Source: Flavobacterium okayamense (lineage in GTDB: Bacteria; Bacteroidota; Bacteroidia; Flavobacteriales; Flavobacteriaceae). Taken from it: a stretch of 64,000 nt of DNA. The notes under the pieces were generated by a model, which had not been told where the DNA came from, searched no databases, and was given only the letters and a program-made list of their open reading frames with translations. The translations under genes were made by a program, and so were the position numbers. The DNA lies in the NCBI RefSeq assembly GCF_019702945.1, contig NZ_AP024749.1, forward strand, positions 992,001-1,056,000, written 5' to 3'. Below are positions 1-37,768 of this stretch, piece by piece (within the stretch, counting starts at the first letter, position 1; each line of letters opens with the position of its first letter).

Positions 1-999
1 GAACTATTACAAGAAATTTATTTAGCCTTTAAAGATTTTTATTCAAGACATGATAATGTAGTAAAAGAAAAAGAGTTTGAAGAAAAGTATAATGAAATTA
101 ATGACAGTATTTTTAATAAAGAAAAATTAAAGATTAAAAATGATTTAGAGAGCAAATATCAATTTAAAGAAAGCCAAAAAGAACTCGAGCTTAAAGAAGA
201 AATTATCCAAAAAGAGAAGAATATTAAGGCTAGCTATTTAATAGGTTTAGTGTTATTAGTAATCTTAATTGTTGTGATTTTAGTTTTTTATGTAATGCGT
301 TTAAAAACACAAAAAAAATTAAGATTTAATCAAAAATTACTTCACGAAGAGCAATTAAAATTGATGCTTGAAAATCAAAGAACAGAGATAATTAAAGAAA
401 AAATTAAGGCTAAAGTTGAAGAAAGAGGAAAATTATCATTAGAACTTCACGATGGAATTGCAAGTGAAATTAGTGCCTTAAAATTATCGTTGGCAACAGA
501 ATCTAATTTAAGCAAATTTGAGATTGATGAATTAGTACAAAAGATAGATAAATTCTACACAGAAATACGAAATCTATCGCATGATTTAGATCCAGATAAC
601 ATCGATTTTGTTGAATTTTCTCAATTTGTAGCTAACTTGTGTAAACAAATTGAAAAAAATGGTTTAAAGACTGCAAAAAACTTATACATAACTAAAAAAG
701 TTGATGATTTAGAAGTTGAAACTTTAGTAAATATTTACAGAATTATTCAGGAAATTATTACAAATATTTTAAAACACGCAAATGCTACTGAAGTTATTTT
801 TGATGTAATTGAAACAGAAGACACATTATATATTCATGTGAAAGACAATGGTGTCGGATTCGATGTAAACGAAACACAAAAAGGAATTGGGTTGAAAAAT
901 ATTCAAAAAAGAGTAGATTCTTTTAAAGGGAAATTTGAAATAGTAGCTAAGAAAGGAGAAGGAACAGAGTTTAAAATTAACTTACCTATTAATAATTAA
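1..999 (+). CDS. Sensor histidine kinase (NarL/DegS type), 5' end beyond window
   Basis: The reading frame is open from base 1, so the gene starts upstream; a GTG at 250 lies inside the membrane segment and is unlikely to be the start. What remains is a charged coiled-coil-like stretch, one transmembrane helix (bases about 235-297), a HisKA_3 dimerisation box with the phospho-accepting His in LSLELHDGIASEIS, and an HATPase_c domain with DNGVGF and GIGLKNI. This architecture is typical of kinases that pair with LuxR-type response regulators, and Bacteroidota members usually carry N-terminal TPR repeats, which would lie outside the window. The probable partner is the regulator at 2472-3098, separated from it by a chitinase gene. 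Confidence 0.9.
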   Translation, partial: ELLQEIYLAFKDFYSRHDNVVKEKEFEEKYNEINDSIFNKEKLKIKNDLESKYQFKESQKELELKEEIIQKEKNIKASYLIGLVLLVILIVVILVFYVMRLKTQKKLRFNQKLLHEEQLKLMLENQRTEIIKEKIKAKVEERGKLSLELHDGIASEISALKLSLATESNLSKFEIDELVQKIDKFYTEIRNLSHDLDPDNIDFVEFSQFVANLCKQIEKNGLKTAKNLYITKKVDDLEVETLVNIYRIIQEIITNILKHANATEVIFDVIETEDTLYIHVKDNGVGFDVNETQKGIGLKNIQKRVDSFKGKFEIVAKKGEGTEFKINLPINN

Positions 1000-1007
1000 T
1001 CATACTA

Positions 1008-1053
1008 CCCCTGAAAACAGTTAGATGATTTATTTAAGTTGTTGTGATTTTTG
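1008..1053 (+). promoter_or_regulatory. Putative activator site and -7 element of the chitinase gene
   Basis: CCCCTGAAAACAGTT starts at 1008. The last base of the weak -7 element GATTTTTG is at 1053, exactly 45 nt later. The same arrangement precedes the two S74 genes at 3109 and 4701. The weak -7 box suggests that the promoter depends on an activator. Confidence 0.55.
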
Positions 1054-1076
1054 TTTTGAATTTAAAAATAGAAATC

Positions 1077-2423
1077 ATGCAACAAAAATTACTAACCTAT
1101 TTAATCGTTTTTTTATCATTTGCGGTTCAAAAATCTTTAGCGCAAAGCAATCAAAATATTGATAATTTAATTACATCTAGTAATTGGAATTCTCTTTTTC
1201 CCCAAAGAGCAGGAACTCAATCAGGACATCCGCAAGGATACACGAGTGACTTTTATTCTTTTAACAATTTTAAACAAGCGGTTGATGAAATGGCAGATTA
1301 TCTCGTTAAAATTAGAAAGAAGCAAGGTGTTTGGGGTGAATTGATTACAGTTACTAAAAAGTCTACTAATACTACTTATGTGTATTCTGATGTGGAATCG
1401 TGGTGGTATTCAAATCCAACGGCAGAAACTGTAATCGATGTAGATTTTCAGGATTTTGCAAATACATCTTCAAACGTTAATAACAAAAGAGAATTAGCTG
1501 CTTTTTTAGCAAATATTTCCAAAGAAACAACGGGCGGTTGGCAATTGCCAGTTGGAGGAGGCTCTTCAGGAGATTATGCGATTTGGGGGTTGTATTTTGT
1601 ACATGAAGTTGGGTATAATAGTTCAAATGGAGCGGGAACGTATTCTCAAGCTCATGCAGATTATCCACCAAATCCAGCGGTGGGATATTATGGAAGAGGG
1701 CCGATACAGTTGTCATGGAATTACAATTATGGAGCCTTTAGTAAATTTTTATATAACGATATAAATGTTTTGTTGAATAATCCAGATTTAGTGCAGCAAG
1801 ATGGTGTTTTGGCTTTTAAATCGGCTATTTGGTTTTGGATGATGCCACAATGTCCTAAACCTTCATGTCATCAAGTTATGCAAGAACTATGGGAAGCGGA
1901 AACAGGAGATTATTCTATGAATAAAATGTATAAAAAGGGATTTGCACATACAAACAATATAATAAATGGCGGATTAGAATGTAGAAATACTTCGTCCTCA
2001 GCTTTTACACAAAAAGTAGTTTTACGTTCAGAATTGTATAAATATTATTTATCAATTTTAGGTTTTTCACCCACAGAAATTGCTTCCGAAGACAGTGGAG
2101 AGTATTCAACGTTGTGCTACGAAAGTTCAACAAATACAATGCAAGATTATGTAAGTTGTAATTTAACAACTTTAACGACACAAGAATTTGATTTGAATAA
2201 AATTAAAGTCTATCCTAATCCTGTAGTTAATAGTTTAACAATTGATTATATTAACAAATTAGATAAAATTGAAGTTTATGATGTTACGGGTAAAAAATAT
2301 ATTGACTTGAAACCAGAAAGTAATAATCTAACTTTAGACTTTTCAAAATTTAATAATGGAATTTACTTTATTAAATTAGTTTTGAATAAAAATACTTTAA
2401 CATATAAAATCGTTAAGTCCTAA
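1077..2423 (+). CDS. Secreted GH19 chitinase with T9SS sorting domain
   Basis: Predicted endochitinase that hydrolyses beta-1,4-GlcNAc polymers outside the cell. The start at 1077 is chosen because it places a signal peptide (MQQKLLTYLIVFLSFAVQKSL, cut near LAQ) at the N-terminus; an in-frame ATG at 1044 would add 11 residues before it. The GH19 core is very clear: AAFLANISKETTGGW with the catalytic-acid Glu at about residue 150, a second Glu in IWGLYFVHE at about 177, YYGRGPIQLSWNYNYG, FWMMPQCPKPSCH and IINGGLEC. The last 80 or so residues hold a type A T9SS sorting domain (VYPNPVVNSLTI ... GIYFIKL). The gene sits between a sensor kinase and its likely response regulator. It could instead act on peptidoglycan or other GlcNAc polymers, but the match to plant-like chitinase motifs is strong. 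Confidence 0.93.
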   Translation: MQQKLLTYLIVFLSFAVQKSLAQSNQNIDNLITSSNWNSLFPQRAGTQSGHPQGYTSDFYSFNNFKQAVDEMADYLVKIRKKQGVWGELITVTKKSTNTTYVYSDVESWWYSNPTAETVIDVDFQDFANTSSNVNNKRELAAFLANISKETTGGWQLPVGGGSSGDYAIWGLYFVHEVGYNSSNGAGTYSQAHADYPPNPAVGYYGRGPIQLSWNYNYGAFSKFLYNDINVLLNNPDLVQQDGVLAFKSAIWFWMMPQCPKPSCHQVMQELWEAETGDYSMNKMYKKGFAHTNNIINGGLECRNTSSSAFTQKVVLRSELYKYYLSILGFSPTEIASEDSGEYSTLCYESSTNTMQDYVSCNLTTLTTQEFDLNKIKVYPNPVVNSLTIDYINKLDKIEVYDVTGKKYIDLKPESNNLTLDFSKFNNGIYFIKLVLNKNTLTYKIVKS

Positions 2424-2471
2424 TTAATTTTTAATAAATTTAGAGTTTACAAAAGCTCATATTACTATTAT

Positions 2472-3098
2472 ATGTCCCTTAAAATTTTAATATTAGACGA
2501 CCATAAAGTTTTTTCCGAAAGTTTAAAATTGGTTTTGGAAACCCATGATTTTGAAGTCATGAATGTTACCAACCCAAAAATGGCGCTCAGTTTAATAAAA
2601 ACCCAAAACATTGATATTTTAATATCAGATATTGAAATGCCAGAAATGAATGGAGTTGATTTTATAAAACTAATCAAAGAAGATTCTCCAAATATTGAAC
2701 ATGAACCTAAAATAATTGTATTAACGACGTACAAAAAAATAAATCTTTTTAAAAAATTAATAGCATTAGGAATTGATGCTTACTTGAGTAAAAATGTAAC
2801 CCACATAGAATTGTTAAGTGTAATTAACAAAGTAATTTCTGGTGAAAAATATTATGAAGCTTCTATTTATAATGAATACTTGAAATCTAATAAGAATAGC
2901 TCAGATATTGAGTTTACAGTAAGAGAATTAGATGTTTTAAAATTAATCATGGAAGAAAAAACTACTGCAGAAATTGCCGAAGAATTGGGGATATCTAATT
3001 ATACCGTTGAAGGACATCGTAAAAATCTTCTACAAAAAACGAATTCAAAAAATGTTGTTGGCTTAATAAAATATACATTAGTAAACAATTTAATTTAA
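2472..3098 (+). CDS. LuxR/NarL-family response regulator
   Basis: DNA-binding response regulator of 208 residues. The receiver domain (about 1-125) has the acidic pocket LDD and the phospho-acceptor Asp53 in ISDIEMPEMNG. The LuxR-type helix-turn-helix (about 148-205) reads FTVRELDVLKLIMEEKTTAEIAEELGISNYTVEGHR in short stretches. It is likely phosphorylated by the kinase whose gene ends at 999. It is flanked by three exported-protein genes that share one promoter-proximal motif, so it is the natural candidate to bind that motif. No copy of the motif precedes this gene itself. Confidence 0.93.
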   Translation: MSLKILILDDHKVFSESLKLVLETHDFEVMNVTNPKMALSLIKTQNIDILISDIEMPEMNGVDFIKLIKEDSPNIEHEPKIIVLTTYKKINLFKKLIALGIDAYLSKNVTHIELLSVINKVISGEKYYEASIYNEYLKSNKNSSDIEFTVRELDVLKLIMEEKTTAEIAEELGISNYTVEGHRKNLLQKTNSKNVVGLIKYTLVNNLI

Positions 3099-3108
3099 AG
3101 AATTCAGC

Positions 3109-3154
3109 CCCCTGAATTCAGTTGGAAGTTTTAATGCAGAAAGATCAATTTTTG
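3109..3154 (+). promoter_or_regulatory. Putative activator site and -7 element of the first S74 gene
   Basis: CCCCTGAATTCAGTT starts at 3109 and contains the perfect palindrome CTGAATTCAG. The weak -7 element AATTTTTG ends at 3154, again 45 nt after the first C. The translation start is 18 nt further on. Confidence 0.55.
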
Positions 3155-3171
3155 CATTAAAACTTTAACAC

Positions 3172-4707
3172 ATGAAAAGATTTAGTATTTCTTTATTAAC
3201 CTTTTTTTCAATCTTCAATCTTTATGCTCAAGTTGGAATTGGAACAACAAGCCCTAATGGTGCTTTAGATATTAACTCAACTACTCAAGGATTAATAATT
3301 CCAAGAGTTTCTTTATCAAACATTACAATTGCGGCTCCAGTTGTTAATCCTATTTCTGGAGGAAACCCATTAACGAGTACTTTAGTTTACAACACCAATA
3401 CATCTTCAGCTGGTATAAATTCTGTATTTCCAGGTTTTTATTATTGGGATGGTTCAAAATGGGTAAGATTAATTGCAGAGCAAAGTTGGTTGCTTAGTGG
3501 AAATTCAAATACAAATCCATCAACTAATTTTTTAGGAACTTTAGATAATAATGATTTAATTTTCAAAAGAAACAATATACAAGCTGGTCGATTATCAGAA
3601 ACCAATACTTCCTTTGGAGTTGAAGCATTACAATCAAATGCTACAGGAAATAACAATACTGCTTTTGGCGCTGGTGCTCTTAAAACAAATACAACCGGAT
3701 TTCAAAATACAGCCATAGGTAAATCGAGTTTGATGCTTAATTCTTCAGGGAATTATAATGTTGCTCTAGGGTATAGTTCTTTAGAAAGAAACACAACAGG
3801 AATTTTAAATACTGCGATTGGACATTCGAGTTTGTATAATAATTTAAACGGAAGAAGTAATGTTGCTGTGGGTAAATCTTCAATGGAAAGAAATATTTCA
3901 GGAATGAATAATACAGCTCTTGGATATAATTCGTTATATAACAATCAAACAGGTAATGATAATATTGCTATAGGAAAAGGAGCAATGGAACGTAATATAA
4001 ATGGAGGAAGAAACATTGCATTAGGTAATTCAAGTTTATATAACAGCCAAACAACTTCAAACTGTTTGTCTATTGGTCACGATTCACAAACTTCAAACCT
4101 ATCAGGGCAATATAATATTTCATTTGGTAATAATAGTTTATTTGCTAATCAAAGTGGAAGCAATAATATAGCTATTGGTCACAATGCATTTAATTTGGGA
4201 AATTTTAATAACTCAATTGCGATAGGTAGTAATTCGGCAATAACTTCAGATAATCAGGTTCGTATTGGTAATAATTCTACAACAAGTATTGGCGGATTTA
4301 CAAGTTGGACTAATGTTTCAGATAAAAGATTTAAAAAGAACATTAATTATGAGAATGTCCCAGGATTAGATTTTATTTTAAAATTAAAACCTGTTAGCTA
4401 TAATCTAAATCAAGAAATAATAGCATCATTTTTAAAAACTGACGTTAAATCGAGCAGTAATTATTTACAAACAGGTTTCATTGCACAAGAAGTTGATGCG
4501 GCAGCTCAAGAAATAAATTTTGATTTTAGTGGAATAGATAGACCAAAAAACGAAGATGACTTTTACGGATTGCGTTATGCTGAGTTTGTAGTTCCATTAA
4601 CTAAATCAATACAAGAACAACAAGAAATGATTGAAGTATTGCAAAATGAAGTCGCTTATTTAAAACAAAAAATAGAAGAAATTTTAAGCAAAAAACAAAC
4701 CCCCTGA
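3172..4707 (+). CDS. Exported beta-roll repeat protein with S74 chaperone domain
   Basis: Surface or secreted fibre-like protein of 511 residues. A signal peptide (1-19, ending NLYAQ) is followed by the QVGIGTTSPxGxLxINSTTxGLIIPR segment common in Bacteroidota. About eleven 17-residue repeats (roughly residues 141-344) follow the scheme tGxxNtAiGxxSLxxNx, as in the beta-roll head of YadA-type trimeric adhesins. The C-terminal 130 residues form a peptidase S74 intramolecular chaperone, with SDKRFKKNI carrying the Ser-Asp-x-Arg-x-Lys signature. In phage tailspikes this domain drives trimerisation and then cleaves itself off. A short coiled coil ends the protein. Its ligand is unknown. It shares motif and promoter layout with the next gene and the chitinase. 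Confidence 0.85.
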   Translation: MKRFSISLLTFFSIFNLYAQVGIGTTSPNGALDINSTTQGLIIPRVSLSNITIAAPVVNPISGGNPLTSTLVYNTNTSSAGINSVFPGFYYWDGSKWVRLIAEQSWLLSGNSNTNPSTNFLGTLDNNDLIFKRNNIQAGRLSETNTSFGVEALQSNATGNNNTAFGAGALKTNTTGFQNTAIGKSSLMLNSSGNYNVALGYSSLERNTTGILNTAIGHSSLYNNLNGRSNVAVGKSSMERNISGMNNTALGYNSLYNNQTGNDNIAIGKGAMERNINGGRNIALGNSSLYNSQTTSNCLSIGHDSQTSNLSGQYNISFGNNSLFANQSGSNNIAIGHNAFNLGNFNNSIAIGSNSAITSDNQVRIGNNSTTSIGGFTSWTNVSDKRFKKNINYENVPGLDFILKLKPVSYNLNQEIIASFLKTDVKSSSNYLQTGFIAQEVDAAAQEINFDFSGIDRPKNEDDFYGLRYAEFVVPLTKSIQEQQEMIEVLQNEVAYLKQKIEEILSKKQTP

Positions 4708-4746
4708 AAACCATTGTGTAAAAGTTTTTTTTCATGTCTTATTTTG
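4701..4746 (+). promoter_or_regulatory. Putative activator site and -7 element of the second S74 gene
   Basis: CCCCTGAAAACCATT starts at 4701 and overlaps the end of the preceding gene. The -7-like element TTATTTTG ends at 4746, 45 nt from the first C as at the other two sites. Confidence 0.55.
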
Positions 4747-4766
4747 AAAAATAAAATTACTTAACC

Positions 4767-5885
4767 ATGAAAATCATAAAATTACTCTTAGTTATTTGCG
4801 TGTTTCAAATCAGTTTTGCACAAGTTGGAATTGGCACAACGAGTCCACATCCAAGTTCAATATTGCATCTTAATAGCACAACGTCAGGTTTATTAATACC
4901 TCGATTAACAGCTAGTCAAAAAGTTGCTGTTGTTTCCCCGGCAACAGGATTGTTAATTTATCAAACAGACGGAGCTGCTGGGTTTTGGTACTTTAATGGC
5001 AGTGTTTGGGTGCCTTTTGGAGGAGGAACTATTTATACATTTAATAATGGGTTAACACTAACTGGGAGTAATGCACAACTTGGAGGTAAACTAGTAAAAA
5101 CAACTACACTAGATCTAGATAACTATGATTTTACCATTCGAACAAACTCTAGTTCAACTTATCCAGGAGAGTTTACCATTGAGGGTGAAAATAGAGAAAT
5201 AATGCAAACTCGTTTTAAAGACAATTATGTAGAGTTTGGTGGTTGGGCTTTTTTAGGTACGAGCGTAGATGGAACTAATTTAACAACTAGTGGTGGAGAT
5301 AATTATACAATTGATGTAGTTGCAGGATTTCAAAGCGATGGAGCAATAGGCGGATCTTCAATTAAAATGGGTTCTGTAGAACATATTATGGATGGAATAA
5401 GTGAGTTGTATATTGATGCGCCAGGCGGTTTTCATCCAAGAAATGATCAAACAAGTTCTTTCGGTAGCTCACTTGGAGCATCTTCAAAAAGATGGGCTTC
5501 GGTTTATGCAAATAATGGAGTTATTCAAACTTCTGATATTAGATTAAAGAAGAATATAAGTCCAATTTCCTATGGTTTAAAAGAAGTTTTAAAGCTTAAT
5601 CCGATTACATACAATTGGAAAGAAAATAAAGTAGGAAATACGGTAATTCCACAAGAACAACAAGAATTAAAGCTTGGTTTTTCTGCTCAAGAGCTTTTAA
5701 ATATTCTTCCAGAAGTAGTACAAACACATAGTTGGGTTCCAGCTGATGAGAAGGGTACTTTTAAACGTGTTGAAAATGAAAAATTAGGAGTTAATTATTC
5801 TGAAATAATTCCTGTTTTAGTCAATGCTATTAAAGAACAACAAAAAGAAATTGACGAATTAAAAGCCCTTATTAAGAAACAATAA
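4767..5885 (+). CDS. Exported protein with S74 chaperone domain
   Basis: Protein of 372 residues with a signal peptide (1-19, ending ISFAQ), the same VGIGTTSP ... LLIPRL N-terminal segment as its upstream neighbour, a Gly/Ser/Thr-rich beta-type middle without the 17-residue repeats, and a C-terminal S74 intramolecular chaperone (from about residue 260) with SDIRLKKNI and NPITYNW. A coiled coil (KEQQKEIDELKALIKK) closes it. It is probably a trimeric surface fibre that processes itself. The pair looks like diverged paralogues sharing a promoter type, not a prophage, since no other phage genes are present. Confidence 0.83.
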   Translation: MKIIKLLLVICVFQISFAQVGIGTTSPHPSSILHLNSTTSGLLIPRLTASQKVAVVSPATGLLIYQTDGAAGFWYFNGSVWVPFGGGTIYTFNNGLTLTGSNAQLGGKLVKTTTLDLDNYDFTIRTNSSSTYPGEFTIEGENREIMQTRFKDNYVEFGGWAFLGTSVDGTNLTTSGGDNYTIDVVAGFQSDGAIGGSSIKMGSVEHIMDGISELYIDAPGGFHPRNDQTSSFGSSLGASSKRWASVYANNGVIQTSDIRLKKNISPISYGLKEVLKLNPITYNWKENKVGNTVIPQEQQELKLGFSAQELLNILPEVVQTHSWVPADEKGTFKRVENEKLGVNYSEIIPVLVNAIKEQQKEIDELKALIKKQ

Positions 5886-5946: not shown

Positions 5947-5985
5947 TCGAGCCACAATTTGTGGCTCGATTAATTAATTTTTTTT
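5947..5985 (+). terminator. Intrinsic terminator after the S74 genes
   Basis: A perfect 10-bp stem (TCGAGCCACA / TGTGGCTCGA) with a 3-nt loop is followed by TTAATTAA and eight T. It ends directly at the start of the small gene at 5986. Confidence 0.85.
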
Positions 5986-37568: not shown

Positions 37569-37687
37569 TTGGGCGTTACCAAGACGAAAAACTACGTTTT
37601 TGTCTCGGTCGGGCTGTTTGCTTTATCTTTTTTGTAAGTTTAAGATTTATTGAAAACAAAAAAGGATATCACTTCCATCCCTAACGC
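37569..37687. repeat. Structured dispersed repeat element, about 119 bp
   Basis: It begins TTGGGCGTTACC and ends CATCCCTAACGC, with GCGTTA and TAACGC as short terminal inverted repeats. Two internal hairpins are visible (AGAC-AAAAAC/GTTTTTGTCT with a bulge, and ATCTTTTTTGT/ACAAAAAAGGAT). I recognise the layout as a repeat common between genes in flavobacteria. A short relative lies at 57936-57978. No coding potential. Confidence 0.65.
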
Positions 37688-37768
37688 AAAACAAAAGGTG
37701 ACAAATGTCACAAAAATAAAGTTTCAAAATACAGAACTTTGTACTGTAACAATTGAAAGCATAATAGA

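What the first reader, a model, noticed from the sequence alone, without database searches (positions are those of the whole stretch)
1008..4746. Three promoters share CCCCTGAA at exactly 45 nt from the same base of the -7 box
CCCCTGAAnnC starts at 1008, 3109 and 4701, upstream of the GH19 chitinase and both S74 fibre genes. In each case the last G of the TTTG in the -7 element lies exactly 45 nt later (1053, 3154, 4746). The -7 boxes are weak and no TTG is present at -33, as expected of activator-dependent promoters. One copy is a full palindrome (CTGAATTCAG). A LuxR/NarL regulator gene sits in the middle of the three targets and its probable kinase at the edge. I infer a dedicated surface-protein regulon with this motif as operator.
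Basis: partly seen in the sequence, partly recalled or inferred. Interest (0 to 1): 0.78.

Follow-up and report, generated by a model that had tools for sequence, protein, structure and literature searches.

The report
Small Flavobacterium surface-gene regulon with operator
A short DNA word placed at one fixed distance from the promoter box marks four genes in this Flavobacterium genome, and comparison with relatives suggests that it is the docking site of the neighbouring two-component regulator, which would control a chitinase and surface-fibre genes together.

Summary
CCCCTGAA lies at 1008, 3109 and 4701, each followed by TTTG whose G is exactly 45 nt downstream. In the 2.78-Mb genome the full pattern occurs four times: these three and one before an unlinked helix-turn-helix gene. 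No place has one mismatch. The motif is 16 bp, CCCCTGAAWWCMRTTR. Four other Flavobacterium genomes encode a regulator 60-62% identical to that at 2472-3098, and each carries the motif beside that gene cluster. One of them, first seen late in the work, has three sites, all at exactly 45 nt. In genomes where no such regulator is known, strict matches are scattered and mostly coding, and none checked has TTTG at 45 nt. The spacer is not conserved. Four recognition-helix residues are nearly constant in 120 homologues and mostly differ in cousins that lack the motif. Best reading: the NarL/FixJ-type regulator binds at about -50 to -35, overlapping the -33 element, as a class II activator. Binding and activation are unproven.

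The parts
1..999 (+). 3' part of the TPR sensor histidine kinase (whole gene 631 aa, L007:8105-10000, starts outside the window)
   Evidence: HATPase_c above cut-off; HisKA_3 and TPR just below their cut-offs; gene
1008..1023 (+). operator 1, CCCCTGAAAACAGTTA
1046..1053 (+). -7 box GATTTTTG (5 of 6 to TAnnTTTG); predicted start 1058
1077..2423 (+). GH19 chitinase with type IX secretion C-terminal sorting domain
   Evidence: Glyco_hydro_19 1.4e-48, Por_Secre_tail 6.9e-12
2472..3098 (+). response regulator, receiver plus LuxR-type (GerE) HTH; proposed to bind the operators; 48 nt behind the chitinase
   Evidence: linkage, co-occurrence and HTH residues
3109..3124 (+). operator 2, CCCCTGAATTCAGTTG; contains palindrome CTGAATTCAG 3112-3121
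3147..3154 (+). -7 box AATTTTTG (5 of 6); predicted start 3159
3172..4707 (+). exported S74 (chaperone of endosialidase) surface protein, S74a
   Evidence: Peptidase_S74 4.4e-10
4701..4716 (+). operator 3, CCCCTGAAAACCATTG, overlapping the S74a stop codon
4739..4746 (+). -7 box TTATTTTG (5 of 6); predicted start 4751
4767..5885 (+). exported S74 surface protein, S74b
   Evidence: Peptidase_S74 2.1e-14
5947..5985 (+). hairpin followed by a T run after S74b, terminator-like
   Evidence: sequence and predicted fold; not listed by the consensus scan

Best explanation
The 16-bp word CCCCTGAAWWCMRTTR is the operator of the NarL/FixJ-type response regulator encoded at 2472-3098. The TPR sensor kinase just upstream probably phosphorylates that regulator (inferred from linkage). 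The active regulator binds at about -50 to -35, centred near -42.5 and overlapping the TTR of the -33 element, and helps the housekeeping sigma factor at a -7 box kept at a fixed distance, as a class II activator. Targets here: the GH19 chitinase with the regulator behind it (so probably autoregulation), two S74 surface-protein genes, and an unlinked HTH gene. Shown: motif, fixed spacing, four sites in this genome, conservation together with the regulator in five genomes. Inferred: binding, phosphorylation, activation rather than repression, signal.
For: Four exact spaced sites in 2.78 Mb, none with one mismatch. Held-out fourth site at G000:C1:550887 with a 6-of-6 -7 box. Five genomes with a regulator 60-62% identical have 18 strict matches: 10 of 18 with TTTG at 43-46 and 15 of 18 with G at 46. 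G894, first seen, has 3 of 3 at 45 nt. Nine non-window sites: 0 of 2000 shuffles reach the observed -7 alignment at any offset. Strict matches in genomes without a known regulator: 0 of 33 with TTTG at 45 nt, 28 of 33 inside ORFs of 100 aa or more. Spacer identity 0.357 against 0.339 expected. H182, Q188, N191, K193 in 118, 119, 120 and 120 of 120 homologues; Y, Y/L, G, T/S in four cousins, whose genomes have no strict match. sigma-A box at -12 to -5 in F. psychrophilum (passages of PMC9723704).
Against: No binding, expression or start-site data. Not all sites are perfect: in G421 the box is TTCG or TTAG and one S74 site is off by one base, in G336 one is TTTA. Unspaced strict matches also outnumber the reversed control in genomes with no known regulator (39 of the 48 places against 10 control matches by my count). 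Only five regulator genomes, and the four G421 repeats are near copies. The kinase is not next to the cluster in the G894 stretch (a different TPR-kinase-like ORF lies about 6 kb away).
Confidence: 0.72

Rival explanations
1. The motif is the operator of the same regulator, but the regulator represses: binding over -50 to -35 blocks RNA polymerase until the signal releases it.
For: The word overlaps the -33 TTR element and the -7 boxes are near consensus (5 of 6 here, 6 of 6 at the HTH gene), so the promoters might work without help.
Against: The exact 45-nt spacing over five genomes is expected of activator-polymerase contact; repressor sites usually tolerate more positions (recalled). No start or expression data.
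Confidence: 0.13
2. The motif is a real activator site, but another regulator, one that co-occurs with this cluster, binds it.
For: No binding data link this regulator to the site; LuxR-type paralogues are numerous (35 first-look candidates in the own genome).
Against: Regulator gene flanked by its sites; of 299 genomes searched for both, the 2 with a full-length homologue of 60% or more have two or more spaced sites and of the other 297 one has a single off-consensus hit; recognition-helix differences in motif-less cousins.
Confidence: 0.1
3. An alternative sigma factor reads an unusual extended promoter; no activator is involved.
For: Two conserved blocks at a fixed distance are also what a promoter looks like.
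Against: The -7 block is the housekeeping TAnnTTTG type, and CCCC at about -50 is far upstream of a -35/-33 contact (recalled). The sigma-ECF motif SM6 of F. psychrophilum has a CGT box (passages of PMC9723704).
Confidence: 0.03
4. Chance, or remnants of CCCCTGAA-containing terminators.
For: The 8-mer alone is only mildly enriched in the window; CCCCTGAAAAA-GGGG hairpins occur in cousins and once here (L026).
Against: Spaced pattern: one reversed-control match in 299 genomes; G894 3 of 3; shuffles.
Confidence: 0.02

Closest known systems
FimS/FimR of Porphyromonas gingivalis
   Same: Bacteroidota two-component system that activates a surface-fibre gene directly: FimR binds the mfa1 promoter region and is an activator (passages of PMC1974823). 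That FimR is LuxR-type and FimS a TPR kinase is recalled.
   Different: Our kinase scores 26.4 bits against the FimS model cut-off of 600. The passages give no operator word or fixed spacing. Different targets; GH19 chitinase and S74 proteins here.
NarL/FixJ response regulators acting from class II sites (recalled)
   Same: Receiver plus GerE HTH; site centre near -42.5, close to the recalled class II position of about -41.5.
   Different: Operator word not the recalled NarL heptamer; neither a simple inverted nor a simple direct repeat; Bacteroidota -33/-7 promoter.
PorY-PorX-SigP of P. gingivalis
   Same: Bacteroidota two-component control touching type IX secretion (start of abstract of PMC4800418 in the listing); our chitinase carries a type IX sorting tail.
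   Different: Works through an ECF sigma factor; here the -7 box is of the housekeeping type.
MctR/MctS (NCBIfam)
   Same: Best NCBIfam models for regulator (122.8 bits) and kinase (112 bits).
   Different: Far below the cut-offs of 300 and 700, so general family likeness only.

Membership tests
NarL/FixJ-type response regulator | Receiver domain plus C-terminal LuxR (GerE) HTH | tested here: met
   Response_reg 1.3e-24 and GerE 1.4e-14, both above cut-off
NarL/FixJ-type response regulator | Phosphorylated by a cognate histidine kinase | not testable with these tools
   Kinase gene linked; transfer not testable
Two-component histidine kinase (HisKA_3 type) | HisKA_3 and HATPase_c domains | tested here: inconclusive
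   HATPase_c 45.6 bits (cut-off 26.4); HisKA_3 22 bits, under its cut-off of 24, but 24.9 in the F. urocaniciphilum orthologue
Class II activator-dependent promoter | Regulator site overlapping the upstream promoter element at one fixed distance | tested here: met
   start position borrowed from F. psychrophilum
Class II activator-dependent promoter | Transcription depends on the bound regulator | not testable with these tools
   Needs expression data
FimS/FimR | Kinase matches the FimS family model | tested here: not met
   26.4 bits against a cut-off of 600
ECF sigma-factor (SigP-like) regulon | CGT-type box instead of TAnnTTTG | tested here: not met
   Boxes are TAnnTTTG-like; CGT box described in passages of PMC9723704

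The most novel reading that the evidence does not exclude
One regulator and one 16-bp class II operator form a constant core switch whose targets are exchanged between species: chitinase and surface proteins in most, an HTH gene here, a stretch with two small peptide ORFs and an M50-like gene in F. indicum, and in the MAG G421 four copies of a ~200-nt hairpin element. In G421 the operator would drive a multi-copy regulatory RNA under a two-component system, comparable to Qrr or Rsm RNAs (recalled analogy), which I do not know from Bacteroidota.
Probability: 0.28. Interest if true: 0.7.

Novelty: new member of a known kind. Interest (0 to 1): 0.55.

Why it matters
Operators and activator positions are, to my knowledge, poorly known in Bacteroidota, whose core promoter differs from that of E. 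coli. Here a four-site regulon with a precise operator, a fixed geometry and a candidate regulator can be read from sequence and tested with one footprint and one deletion. It also offers a natural specificity experiment: cousins at the same locus with altered recognition-helix residues and no such motif. It would tie a secreted chitinase and S74 surface proteins to one signal.

Tried and rejected
Strict TAnnTTTG in the spaced pattern found only the HTH-gene site in 60 genomes because the window's three boxes have one mismatch each; it was replaced by TTTG. Inverted and 10-bp direct repeats were both examined as the inner logic of the word: positions 6/11 are complementary in 14 of 14, 4/13 in 10, 5/12 in 6, but 2/15 and 3/14 in 0 of 14; direct repeats agree at 1/11 and 5/15 in 14 of 14 but at 3/13 and 4/14 in 0. 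Undecided. The outer asymmetry (CCC against TTR) would fit an overlapping -33 element. G144 and G241 carry CCCCTGAAAACCATTG in a gpsA-like promoter with TTTG ending at 55 nt; neither is among the 91 regulator-positive genomes; taken as chance. G131's single spaced hit breaks the MR consensus and faces the 3' end of a gene; taken as chance. Rfam gave nothing for the G421 element. The terminator-like inverted repeat on the minus strand at 3119-3100 is one of 2 found against 2.4 expected. Literature: CCCCTGAA with Flavobacterium, 0 papers; CCCCTGAAAAC, 9 papers, none with Flavobacterium in its listed title or abstract start; other searches. 'Not in print' holds only for these searches of the open library.

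Limits: regulator presence was tested in the 299 genomes, in 397 family genomes and in 80 handles (G421 and 79 of the 99 genus genomes that were new), not in the genomes new except G888 (= G421) and G894. Of 42 distinct strict matches in genomes without a known regulator (39, 3 more), 33 were examined and one (G332); 7 of the other 8 lie in genomes covered by the spaced search, which did not return them; one (G395) was not examined. One in-ORF match (G113 C15) and three of the four near-identical G421 repeats were dropped from the 11-site logo and the 14-site table; all are in the 18-site counts. The nine non-window sites include the in-ORF match.
Full report
WHAT IS THERE. The window's first 6 kb hold, in order, the 3' part of a TPR sensor kinase (whole gene L007:8105-10000), a GH19 chitinase with a type IX secretion tail (1077-2423), a receiver-LuxR response regulator (2472-3098) and two proteins with S74 domains (3172-4707, 4767-5885). 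CCCCTGAA lies at 1008, 3109 and 4701, each with TTTG ending 45 nt later. If starts lie 5 nt after the box, the leaders are 19, 13 and 16 nt.

IS IT CHANCE? The 8-mer alone would not impress: 5 of 100 shuffles of the window have three. The fixed spacing does: at the stated offset 0 of 2000 shuffles of the three downstream stretches match the -7 consensus as well, 6 of 2000 at any offset. Genome-wide the pattern CCCCTGAANNCNRTT with TTTG at 45 nt has 4 exact places, none with one mismatch, 3 with two and 39 with three (15 of those 39 belong to one dispersed repeat); the reversed control has 27. Of 19 CCCCTGAA in the genome, 16 were printed and one of these has TTTG at 45 nt; the other three are the window's. 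The fifth CCCCTGAANNC lies inside an ORF.

A FOURTH SITE. G000:C1:550887 reads CCCCTGAATTCAGTTG, with TAATTTTG (6 of 6) at the same offset and an ATG 13 nt after the predicted start, before a 112-aa HTH protein.

RELATIVES. A third strict match there lies inside an ORF. In G336 the cluster is kinase, site, chitinase, regulator, site, an exported-looking protein with no Pfam hit; the first site has TTTG, the second TTTA. In G421 (L029; a MAG titled Limnohabitans, but the same contig numbers and coordinates appear in the Flavobacterium genus draw as G888) the regulator is followed by a motif and a 1177-aa GEVED/fn3 protein, and an S74 gene on another contig has a motif with the G one base early. 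G894 surfaced only; its contig length, 2,993,089, equals that listed for F. indicum GPTSA100-9. It has three strict matches: before the chitinase (regulator 33 nt behind it), before an S74 pair, and 334 nt before the first of two small peptide ORFs; 3 of 3 have TTTG ending at 45 nt. Over the five genomes there are 18 strict matches, 17 not inside a gene body (one overlaps the S74a stop); 10 of 18 have TTTG at 43-46 and 15 of 18 have G at 46.

CO-OCCURRENCE. In 299 genomes searched for both, full-length regulators of 60% identity or more are in 2 (own, G113; G172 has a fragment at 61%). The spaced pattern is in those 2 and once, off consensus, in G131. The unspaced word is in 40 of 398 genomes (48 places, 10 reversed-control matches by my count) and, with a final R, in 19 of 396 (33 places, 8 control). 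So unspaced matches exceed the control even without the regulator genomes, but 0 of 33 examined ones have TTTG at 45 nt and 28 of 33 are inside ORFs. Among 397 family genomes two have a regulator at 1e-45 or better: own and G783, the latter at 50% and 44%; the strict motif is absent from its two fetched stretches.

KEY AND LOCK. At the same locus (uppP-truB on one side, ftsX-leuS on the other) G084, G301 and G255 have an adjacent kinase and regulator at 48-51% and no strict motif anywhere. Between the 120 listed homologues of the window's regulator and four such cousins (with G338), four HTH positions differ: H182 (118 of 120), Q188 (119), N191 (120), K193 (120) against Y, Y/L, G, T/S. G172's fragment has Y182 and G191 but Q188. 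This is correlation in a few lineages, not proof of contact.

ANATOMY OF THE SITE. Information is concentrated at positions 1-16 and 40-46 (11 sites). The 22-nt spacer is at chance identity, 0.357 against 0.339 (14 sites), so selection rather than recent copying keeps the blocks; the four G421 repeats are the exception. With the sigma-A box at -12 to -5 (F. psychrophilum start-site map, passages of PMC9723704) the word covers -50 to -35, centre -42.5. Its end (TTG 9, TTA 5 of 14) sits 22 nt before the -7 box, inside the N17-23 range that I recall for Flavobacterium TTG/TAnnTTTG promoters. Hence 'no TTG at -33' fails for two of three promoters, and I take the word to be an operator fused to the -33 element.

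MECHANISM. Signal, TPR kinase, regulator, class II activation of chitinase-regulator, S74a, S74b and the HTH gene. The regulator lies 48 nt behind the chitinase here and 23, 59 and 33 nt behind it in G113, G336 and G894, so its own synthesis is probably under operator 1. Shown: sequence, spacing, conservation. Inferred: phosphorylation, binding, sign of regulation, signal.

WHAT IT IS NOT. It does not look like an ECF (SigP-type) promoter, because the core is TAnnTTTG. The kinase is not FimS by model score, though a Bacteroidota system in which a response regulator directly activates a surface-fibre gene is known: FimR at mfa1 (passages of PMC1974823).

A SIDE RESULT. G421 has four copies of a ~200-nt element, each behind CCCCTGAAAACCGTTR with TTAG at 43-46, without a long ORF (47 aa at most in the unmasked copies near the start) and with a long predicted hairpin (-36.1 and -33.3 kcal/mol; for one copy z = -2.1, 6 of 200 shuffles fold as well). 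A whole-genome search finds those four only (one split by masked bases), none in own, G113, G336, G894 or G084, and a weak 51-nt match in G255. It may be a regulon-driven small RNA; this is a guess.

VERDICT. A real, small, well-defined candidate regulon; the operator was not found in print by my searches; the kind of system is known.

Noticed in passing
L203:7558 and 7143 (-); L206:13379 and 12866 (-) (genome G421): Four copies of a ~200-nt hairpin-forming element, each directly behind the operator-promoter, no Rfam match; possible multi-copy small RNA.
   Followed up: partly
L029:33-410, 1156-3069, 3173-5095 (genome G421): Two whole TPR sensor kinases and a kinase C-terminal fragment in tandem upstream of the regulator.
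   Followed up: partly
L270:8112-9894 (genome G894): Third operator lies upstream of two small similar peptide ORFs (41 and up to 53 aa) and a gene with a sub-threshold M50 peptidase match; looks like a secreted-peptide locus.
   Followed up: partly
window 37603-37692 (-): Rfam Flavo-1 small RNA.
   Followed up: no
L248 and L262 (genomes G144, G241): CCCCTGAAAACCATTG in a gpsA-like promoter with TTTG ending at 55 nt, ten more than 45; taken as chance.
   Followed up: partly
G000:C1:1628161 and 14 further places: A dispersed repeat beginning CTGCTAAACGCAGTTCTATGATTTT makes up 15 of the 39 three-mismatch matches.
   Followed up: no
L237 and L145-L148 (genomes G338, G084, G301, G255, G172): Cousin regulators, in three of these genomes seen beside a kinase at the same locus, with altered recognition-helix residues and no strict motif; their operator is unknown.
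   Followed up: partly
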